64,000 nt of DNA, taken from NCBI RefSeq assembly GCF_038404985.1, contig NZ_JBBKBA010000001.1, positions 2,260,001-2,324,000 on the forward strand, given 5' to 3'. Position 1 is the first letter of the stretch; each line of letters opens with the position of its first letter. The stretch comes from Ferrovibrio sp. MS7 (GTDB lineage Bacteria > Pseudomonadota > Alphaproteobacteria > Ferrovibrionales > Ferrovibrionaceae). The translations under genes were made by a program, and so were the position numbers. Shown one piece after another: positions 15,348 to 49,367 of the stretch. The notes under the pieces were generated by a model. That model searched no databases and was not told the DNA's origin. It was given only the letters and a program-made list of their open reading frames with translations.

Positions 15348-15420
15348 CGTCATGCCCGGACTTGATCCGGGCATCTGTCTCGGATTGCAAGAGATCCCCG
15401 GGTCAGGCCCGGGGATGACG
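15348..15420. repeat. Paired palindromes, CGTCAY...RTCTC family
   Basis: Two hairpins in opposite orientation: 15352-15374 (arms ATGCCCGGA/TCCGGGCAT, loop CTTGA) and 15394-15416 (ATCCCCGGG/CCCGGGGAT, loop TCAGG), bordered by CGTC and GACG. Same family as elements at 20402, 39086, 43710 and 49294. It lies between convergent genes and may also end transcription. Confidence 0.8.
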
Positions 15421-20354: not shown

Positions 20355-20414
20355 CCAGTCTCGTCATCCTCGGCCCAGTCTCGTCATCCTCGGCCCAGTC
20401 TCGTCATCCTCGGC
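20355..20414. repeat. Three 20-bp tandem repeats
   Basis: Three perfect copies of a 20-base unit starting CCAGTCTCGTC. The unit is the left border and left arm of the CGTCAY...RTCTC hairpin that follows at 20406-20428, so only half of a palindrome has been amplified. Confidence 0.9.
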
Positions 20415-20495
20415 CTTGAGCCGAGGATCTCCCGCAAGCACAGACTCCAGCCGCCACGCGGCCTGAGATGCCTGGCTCAAGGCCGGGCATGACGA
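20402..20495. repeat. Paired palindromes, CGTCAY...RTCTC family
   Basis: Hairpin 20406-20428 (arms ATCCTCGGC/GCCGAGGAT, loop CTTGA) and, inverted, 20468-20490 (ATGCCTGGC/GCCGGGCAT, loop TCAAG, one mismatch). It separates convergent ppa and the GMC oxidoreductase gene. Confidence 0.8.
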
Positions 20496-25753: not shown

Positions 25754-26146
25754 ATATCAGAAAAGGGCTCGGGATTGCTCCCGAGCCCTTCGGCGTTCTC
25801 TAACAAGAGATTCGCTGTGATCGATCAGGTCTCCACAGGAGACCTGCTATCCAGCTTGCTCCCGAGTGTCCACTGGACACTCGTCCGCTGCGCTGCCCTT
25901 CGGGCCTCTGCGCCCACGAGCCTCCACTGGAGGCTCGCGCGCTTAGAGCCTATCGGACTTTGAGCCGTAGGCTTAAATCGAAAGGGCTCGGGATTGCTCC
26001 CGAGCCCTTCAGCATTCTCTAACAAGGGATCCGCTGTTCGCGATCAAGTCCGCACTGCGGACTTGCTATCTCCTGCTTGCTACCGAGTGTCCACTGGACA
26101 CTCGTCCGCTGCGCAGCCCGTCGGTCTTTAAGTCCGCAACGCGGAC
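25754..26146. repeat. Palindrome block: two diverged copies of a hairpin-rich unit
   Basis: Gene-free. Two related units, about 25761-25978 and 25979-26155, each start with the same strong hairpin (25763-25790; 25982-26009; arms AAGGGCTCGGGA/TCCCGAGCCCTT) followed by a shared CTCTAACAAG segment. Each then holds short hairpins with 9-base arms and a 3-base ACT/ACA loop: 25826-25846, 25863-25883, 25917-25937, 26045-26065, 26084-26104. Arms differ (CAGGTCTCC, CGAGTGTCC, CGAGCCTCC, CAAGTCCGC, CGAGTGTCC) but every one is self-complementary. Confidence 0.85.
25763..25790 (-). terminator. Terminator-like hairpin, leftmost copy
   Basis: 12-base arms and a 4-base loop; on the minus strand the stem is followed by TTTTCT, so it could stop transcription from pntB. 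On the plus strand no T-run follows, though it sits only 9 bases after the dGTPase stop. Confidence 0.5.
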
Positions 26147-26155
26147 TTAAAGACC
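26123..26155. repeat. Palindrome with 15-base arms spanning the pntB stop
   Basis: Arms GGTCTTTAAGTCCGC and GCGGACTTAAAGACC with loop AAC. The pntB stop codon (26147-26149) and last codons lie inside the right arm. Confidence 0.8.
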
Positions 26156-39085: not shown

Positions 39086-39160
39086 GAGATGCGCGGATCA
39101 AGTCCGCGCATGACGCTTATTATTATTCTCGTCACCCCCGGGCTTGACCCGGGGGTCTCG
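39086..39160. repeat. Paired palindromes, CGTCAY...RTCTC family
   Basis: Hairpins 39089-39111 (arms ATGCGCGGA/TCCGCGCAT, loop TCAAG) and 39134-39156 (ACCCCCGGG/CCCGGGGGT, loop CTTGA). The order of the two orientations is reversed relative to the other copies. Located between the MFS and uracil-DNA glycosylase genes. Confidence 0.8.
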
Positions 39161-43699: not shown

Positions 43700-43709
43700 A
43701 AAGCAGCGC

Positions 43710-43837
43710 GTCATGCCCGGCCATGGCCGTTCGTGCCTGTGCGCCTACGAACGCCACTAGGCGTTCGTAGGCTTACAGTGAGCCGGGCATCTCTTCCAAT
43801 TTGGCGGAAGACCCCCGGGTCAAGCCCGGGGGTGACG
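43710..43837. repeat. CGTCAY...RTCTC palindrome pair with a second palindrome inserted in its loop
   Basis: The left hairpin arms ATGCCCGGC (43713-43721) and GCCGGGCAT (43782-43790) are normally 5 bases apart (CTTGA in other copies), but here 60 bases separate them. The inserted piece contains another palindrome, 43743-43772, with 13-base arms GCCTACGAACGCC/GGCGTTCGTAGGC around ACTA. The right partner hairpin is intact at 43811-43833 (ACCCCCGGG/CCCGGGGGT, loop TCAAG). Confidence 0.8.
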
Positions 43838-43881
43838 ACGGTTTTTGATGGTGGGCGGTTTTTGATGTTCGGTGGCTTCTG

Positions 43882-49293: not shown

Positions 49294-49367
49294 CGTCATG
49301 CCCGGGCTCGACCCGGGCATCTCCTTCCACTTGGCCTGAGATCGCCGGGTCAAGCCCGGCGATGACG
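49294..49367. repeat. Paired palindromes, CGTCAY...RTCTC family
   Basis: Hairpins 49298-49320 (arms ATGCCCGGG/CCCGGGCAT, loop CTCGA) and 49341-49363 (ATCGCCGGG/CCCGGCGAT, loop TCAAG), in opposite orientation with GACG at the right border. It fills part of the gap between convergent genes; the remaining 49368-49486 shows nothing. Confidence 0.8.

What the first reader, a model, noticed from the sequence alone, without database searches (positions are those of the whole stretch)
43710..43790. One palindromic repeat apparently inserted inside another
Other copies of the CGTCAY...RTCTC hairpin have 5 bases (CTTGA) between the arms. Here the arms ATGCCCGGC and GCCGGGCAT are intact but 60 bases apart, and the extra sequence is dominated by the ACT-core palindrome. 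The left part of the loop still looks like C and the right ends in TGA, as expected if about 55 bases entered the loop. This suggests that the ACT-core element moves or is copied into hairpin loops, although no transposase was seen here.
Basis: partly seen in the sequence, partly recalled or inferred. Interest (0 to 1): 0.6.

Follow-up and report, generated by a model that had tools for sequence, protein, structure and literature searches.

The report
Mobile hairpin nested in REP loops
A roughly 50-base folded DNA element has repeatedly become lodged inside the loops of another family of short palindromic repeats in a Ferrovibrio bacterium, and comparison with close relatives shows the occupied loops were once empty, so one tiny repeat family is spreading inside another.

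Summary
At 43709-43793 a CGTC-type REP hairpin (arms 43713-43721 and 43782-43790) has a 60-nt loop where plain copies have CTTGA. The extra sequence is a structured element: GCCCTTCGGGC hairpin, then CTSTGCGCC-stem-tip-stem-CGCGCTTASAG. A covariance model finds 42 copies in this 4.58-Mb genome: 28 in loops of the same REP family, 10 in loops of a second REP family, 4 elsewhere. All 38 nested copies share one orientation. The genome also holds 146 plain REPs by a strict pattern. Relatives give empty sites. Two congeners have a plain REP dimer at this same TPR-ispE junction, and five more have no REP there. Three other REPs are plain here but filled in a conspecific MAG. In two of those the left REP arm was replaced too, so the filled state is derived and probably copied from another filled REP. 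"ACT core" is not the hallmark: ACTA is only this copy's tip. No Y1/RAYT transposase exists in the genome and no longer parent element was found. Best reading: a non-autonomous palindromic element entered REP loops at least three times, then spread by short-homology conversion or template switching between REPs. New variant of a known kind; mechanism inferred.

The parts
43709..43793 (+). Outer CGTC-type REP hairpin (tag CGTC 43709-43712, arms 43713-43721 and 43782-43790, tail CTC) whose loop is 60 nt instead of 5
   Evidence: family description PMC3733652
43722..43781 (+). Enlarged loop containing the nested element; last three bases TGA are the remnant of the plain CTTGA loop
43726..43736 (+). 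First hairpin of the nested element (consensus GCCC-TTC-GGGC; here GCCG-TTC-GTGC, decayed; GCCG-TTC-GGGC in the conspecific)
43737..43778 (+). Second, long hairpin of the nested element: CTGTGCGCC TACGAACGCC-ACTA-GGCGTTCGTAGGC TTACAG
   Evidence: CM match 43720-43781, 62 bits
43810..43838 (-). Partner REP in inverted orientation, plain CTTGA loop; the same partner is present in G002 and G004
25889..25951 (+). Second copy of the nested element in the window (AGAG subtype), not in a REP loop but inside a tandem hairpin unit next to an inferred pntB 3' end
   Evidence: (68 bits)
15349..15375 (+). Plain REP (empty loop) for comparison
39131..39157 (+). Plain REP (empty loop) for comparison
49295..49321 (+). 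Plain REP (empty loop) for comparison

Best explanation
The 55-or-so extra bases are one copy of a small (about 48-55 nt), non-coding, doubly folded mobile element that lives mostly inside the loops of CGTC-type REPs. Shown: it is a family of 42 copies with strong compensatory variation; it sits in one orientation in the loops of two REP families; it is absent from the same loops in relatives; at least two fillings are derived. Inferred: (1) the element entered REP loops at least three times, because three junction classes exist: TTACAG|TGA and TTAGAG|CCCGG in REP-A, TTACA|GAGGG in REP-B. (2) After entry it multiplied mainly by copying from a filled REP into a plain REP, through gene conversion or template switching on single-stranded REP DNA. 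The shared CGTCAY arm guides the copying on the left, and TGA (or the whole right arm) closes it on the right. (3) Rarer insertions outside REPs, for example an exact 48-nt in-frame insertion in an IS3 transposase gene, show that it can also insert without REP arms, by an unidentified route.
For: 42 copies in G000 at E<=1e-3, 18 in the 72%-complete conspecific G001. Covariation: 96.7% of cells paired, 10 of 20 pairs with double changes, 0/500 shuffles. Thirty-eight of 42 are in REP loops, all in the same orientation. Junction class matches subtype: AGAG with A-CCC (6) or outside (3); ACAG/AAAG with A-TGA (22), REP-B (10) or IS3 (1). Empty site at this very locus: G002 and G004 have a plain dimer; G003, G005, G006, G007 and G009 have no REP in the junction. 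Within-species empty/filled pairs at G001:C2:70275, 60766 and 556768. In the first two the filled copy has a foreign left arm (ATGCCCG) against the native right arm (CGCGCAT, CGGGGAT), while the empty allele is perfectly paired; this shows direction and co-conversion. Candidate donors: 556768 resembles C1:1891021 with identical arms (95%), 60766 resembles G001:C2:415430 (97%). REP arms otherwise agree (19 of 27 against 7.4 expected, maximum 16 in 20,000 shuffles). IS3 insertion: 16-aa in-frame gap against a homologue. No Y1 transposase in G000 or G001; no half-elements.
Against: Conversion is inferred from two co-converted arms; the third polymorphic site has identical arms and cannot tell. 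Agreement of many rare arm types (ATACGCG, ATCCTCG, ACCGCCG) would fit precise insertion into existing loops equally well. Copies outside REPs need another route. G001 is a MAG. At the window locus the arms in G002/G004 (GCGCGGG/CCCGCGC) differ from those here, so more than a simple insertion happened since that split.
Confidence: 0.6

Rival explanations
1. Site-specific transposition: the element is a MITE-like passenger moved in trans by a transposase or recombinase that recognises REP loops, as IS1397, IS621, ISPpu9 and ISRm22 recognise REPs.
For: All 38 nested copies sit in the loop in one orientation. IS families that insert at a fixed point in REPs are documented (PMC1525189). Non-REP insertions exist, one an exact 48-nt in-frame insertion. 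Rare arm types stay matched after insertion.
Against: No longer element with these ends in the genome; no Y1 transposase. Junctions differ between the three contexts and show no constant duplication. Two of three fresh fillings replaced the left arm.
Confidence: 0.25
2. Whole composites (filled REP plus partner) move as units, so the element was nested once per context and only the finished 130-bp dimer spreads. Not exclusive with the best explanation.
For: The composite matches over about 130 nt at many loci. Some REP loci differ wholesale between the two conspecific genomes, e.g. G001:C2:450719, G001:C1:65400, G000:C2:73067.
Against: At three loci the flanks and partner REP are orthologous and only the loop, with the left arm in two, differs. 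Seven arm types carry the element.
Confidence: 0.35
3. The long loop is ancestral and plain REPs arose by loss of the loop insert.
For: None specific.
Against: Plain REPs occur at the orthologous locus in G002/G004. The element model finds three copies in G002/G004 at E<=1e-3, none in a REP loop, and none at all in the other members sampled. Filled copies with mismatched arms are derived.
Confidence: 0.03
4. Chance palindrome or regulatory RNA unrelated to mobility.
For: REPs lie at 3' ends of genes and probably fold in mRNA (PMC3733652).
Against: 42 similar copies, 0 expected by shuffling; no Rfam family.
Confidence: 0.02

Closest known systems
CGTC-tagged REPs (families CGTC-1 and CGTC-3; Di Nocera et al. 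2013, PMC3733652)
   Same: The two outer hairpins: CGTC or TGTC tag, 8-9 bp stem, 4-5 nt loop, head-to-head dimers, alphaproteobacterial, no dedicated transposase.
   Different: That survey reports loops of 4-5 nt (a few variants); a 50-nt structured element nested in the loop is not described in the passages read.
GTAG-14 REPs of Bradyrhizobium with long self-complementary loops (PMC3733652)
   Same: REP with an internally paired, enlarged loop (up to 27 nt).
   Different: Other REP superfamily; loop not reported as a separately dispersed element found in other REP families or in genes.
Insertion sequences targeting REPs (IS1397, ISKpn1, IS621, ISPpu9/10, ISPa11, ISRm22; PMC1525189)
   Same: Fixed-position insertion of foreign DNA in a REP.
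   Different: Those are full IS elements with a transposase; here about 50 nt, non-coding, no parent found.
Correia/NEMIS elements, 107- and 155-bp forms differing by a 50-bp internal sequence (PMC2229807)
   Same: Small palindromic repeat existing with and without an internal block of about 50 bp.
   Different: TIRs, TA termini and target duplication; the internal block is not reported as an independent element in other repeats.
RUP/BOX/SPRITE repeats of pneumococcus (PMC3049150)
   Same: Small repeats found inserted into one another.
   Different: Sporadic overlaps, no systematic loop targeting reported.

Membership tests
CGTC REP (outer hairpin) | CGTC/TGTC tag at one end, 8-9 bp stem starting AT/AC, 4-5 nt loop, short tail, mostly head-to-head dimers | tested here: met
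   146 strict plain copies, loop CTTGA, often in inverted pairs; PMC3733652. The window copy itself fails only the loop length.
CGTC REP (nested element itself) | CGTC tag and 8-9 bp stem with 4-5 nt loop | tested here: not met
   The element has no CGTC tag and a two-hairpin fold with a TT bulge.
GTAG REP / REPIN mobilised by RAYT | GTAG tag at hairpin foot | tested here: not met
   No GTAG at the ends of the element.
GTAG REP / REPIN mobilised by RAYT | Y1 (HuH) transposase gene in the genome | tested here: not met
   PF01797: none in G000 (99.9% complete) or G001; one in G002.
MITE | Small, non-coding, dispersed, with filled and empty sites | tested here: met
MITE | Terminal inverted repeats shared with a resident transposon | tested here: not met
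   No separate halves or longer elements; the ends GCCCTTCGGGC and CGCGCTTASAG are not inverted repeats of each other.
MITE | Target-site duplication of constant length | tested here: inconclusive
   Possible CCC repeat at the IS3 and A-CCC sites; none at TGA or REP-B sites.
Known RNA family (Rfam) | Match at gathering score | tested here: not met

The most novel reading that the evidence does not exclude
A dedicated, still unknown factor recognises REP hairpin loops as single-stranded DNA and installs a 48-nt folded passenger there in fixed orientation, with REP arms serving as guide: a transposition mode without terminal inverted repeats or a conventional target duplication.
Probability: 0.15. 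Interest if true: 0.75.

Novelty: new variant of a known kind. Interest (0 to 1): 0.5.

Why it matters
How CGTC REPs spread is an open question; the survey that defined them states they lack a dedicated transposase (PMC3733652). A nested element marks the REP loop like a tag: filled/empty pairs within one species show which bases were copied at each event (loop, or left arm plus loop). That makes the copying route of these REPs directly testable in a small set of genomes. It also adds a case in which one miniature palindromic family parasitises another, in two REP families at once.

Tried and rejected
Rfam search of filled loci and of the window: no relevant family. Viral contigs: none with the element. 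Search for half-elements, hence a longer parent: none. Y1/RAYT transposase as mobiliser: absent. First long-loop pattern (25-55 nt) was too short and missed even the known copies; the 45-75 nt version found them in G000 and G001 and nothing with a nested element elsewhere in the genus. Search for other copies of the IS3 gene to get a same-genome empty site: only one copy; a plasmid homologue was used instead. The ACT-core family as a unit was rejected: tips vary, and the tandem GAGTGTCC-ACT-GGACACTC hairpins at 25826-26105 do not share the conserved frame of the element.

Full report
WHAT IS THERE. At 43709-43793 a CGTC-type REP has intact arms ATGCCCGGC (43713-43721) and GCCGGGCAT (43782-43790) around a 60-nt loop; plain copies have CTTGA. 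The loop ends in TGA, as plain loops do. It lies between the stop of a TPR gene (43699) and the start of an IspE-like kinase gene (43882; gene names from reading the sequence). The nested fold is real: DNA z -6.8, RNA of the whole dimer z -8.7. The partner REP at 43810-43838 is plain.

A FAMILY, NOT AN ACCIDENT. BLAST with the loop finds about 25 relatives in the same genome. Aligned copies share GCCCTTCGGGC, then CTSTGCGCCC, a variable stem and tip, then CGCGCTTASAG. The variable stem keeps pairing through double changes: 10 of 20 pairs, 24 cells, 0 of 500 shuffles. A covariance model finds 42 copies in the genome, 18 in a conspecific MAG, 2 and 1 in two congeners, none at E<=1e-3 in the other 14 genomes of the genus and family. 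No viral contig matches. The tip ACTA is particular to this copy and its ortholog; the 'ACT core' is therefore not diagnostic.

WHERE THE COPIES SIT. Of the 42: 22 in REP-A (CGTC) loops with junction TTACAG|TGA (one degenerate); 6 in REP-A loops with junction TTAGAG|CCCGG; 10 in loops of a second REP family, REP-B (GTCACCCTCGCGAAAGCGAGGGTCCCATTT type); 4 outside REPs. All 38 nested copies have the same orientation relative to the CGTC/TGTC tag. The strict plain REP-A pattern has 146 copies, so roughly one REP-A in six is filled. Subtype and junction go together, and the AGAG and ACAG subtypes each occur both inside and outside REPs, which suggests at least three separate entries (inference). 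In the two congeners the few copies at E<=1e-3 are all outside REP loops: one lies between genes in G002, and both genomes have one in an rhs-like gene.

EMPTY SITES. At this locus G002 and G004 carry a plain REP dimer, while G003, G005, G006, G007 and G009 have a short TPR-ispE junction without any REP; for G008 only the ispE side was recovered. The most economical order is: no REP, then REP dimer, then nested element in the ancestor of G000 and G001 (whose ortholog carries the same insert). Within the species, three REPs are plain in G000 and filled in G001: C2:70275 (empty ATGCGCGGA-CTTGA-TCCGCGCAT), C2:60766 (empty ATCCCCGGG-CTTGA-TCCGGGGAT), C2:556768 (empty ACCGCCGGG-CTTGA-CCCGGCGGT); the sequence around each hairpin is closely alike. 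In the first two the filled allele has the left arm ATGCCCG, which no longer matches its right arm. The empty alleles are perfect hairpins, so filling is the derived state and the event replaced the left arm together with the loop. The best-matching copies elsewhere carry that left arm, or, for 556768, identical arms on both sides.

HOW IT PROBABLY WORKS. Short-homology copying between REPs (gene conversion or template switching, which I cannot separate) explains fixed orientation, class-specific junctions, co-converted left arms and the absence of a resident Y1 transposase or any longer parent element. Gene conversion was proposed for REP evolution long ago: the title of Higgins et al. 1988, cited in PMC12306157 and PMC2267715, asks it; I did not read that paper. 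REP arms in filled copies agree in 19 of 27 cases against 7.4 expected. Either most events respect the arms, or pairing is restored or selected; this is the main point where a loop-specific transposase remains possible. The copy in an IS3-family transposase gene (C2:1021624) is a clean 48-nt, 16-codon in-frame insertion relative to a plasmid homologue, so insertion without REP arms also occurs. Whole composites may also move (rival 2); the explanations are not exclusive.

RELATION TO WHAT IS KNOWN. The outer hairpins are CGTC REPs, for which no dedicated transposase is known and whose loops are 4-5 nt (PMC3733652). ISs that target REPs (PMC1525189), the 50-bp internal block that separates the two NEMIS sizes (PMC2229807), long paired loops in Bradyrhizobium GTAG-14 REPs (PMC3733652), and pneumococcal repeats inserted into each other (PMC3049150) are the nearest parallels. 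My searches of the held open-access library found no description of this element or of a systematic repeat-in-REP-loop family; that library is incomplete.

LIMITS. G001 is a MAG with 72% completeness. Polarity is shown at two within-species sites plus the window locus. The mechanism is inferred from sequence only. IS110 and other transposases were not surveyed.

Noticed in passing
window 25762-26155: Two tandem units of about 220 nt full of hairpins (AAAGGGCTCGGGATTGCTCCCGAGCCCTT, GAGTGTCC-ACT-GGACACTC and others) next to a gene end that reads as pntB. The conspecific appears to have one unit, which ends in a nested-type element where G000 has a different hairpin (GGTCTTTAAGTCCGCAACGCGGACTTAAAGACC).
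   Followed up: partly
G000:C2:1021624-1021682 (L110): Element inserted in frame (48 nt, 16 codons) in an IS3-family transposase gene.
   Followed up: yes
G002:C133:102650 (L064) and G004:C22:23077 (L063): Element inside an rhs-like gene: the upstream and downstream parts lie in different frames, so the gene looks broken.
   Followed up: partly
G000:C1:716214, C1:778499; G001:C2:468042: AGAG-subtype copies sit at gene 3' ends in inverse orientation, so that CTCTAAGC lies at or beside the stop codon; in one case (C1:716214) the element seems to supply the TAA stop itself.
   Followed up: no
G001:C2:450719, G001:C1:65400, G000:C2:73067, G000:C1:2231586: Whole REP clusters differ or are absent between the two conspecific genomes at orthologous intergenic sites, indicating fast REP turnover.
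   Followed up: partly
G000:C1:784062-784134 (L026) and C1:679944 (L103): Internally deleted filled REPs: one lacks the first hairpin, one is fused to the partner REP.
   Followed up: no
G000:C3:352616 (L020): A REP left arm followed by a diverged left half of the element and a different GC-rich hairpin (GGAGGCGGCTTTGCCTCC).
   Followed up: no
window 20363-20430: Triplicated REP left half (CGTCATCCTCGGCCCAGTCT) in front of a complete REP.
   Followed up: no
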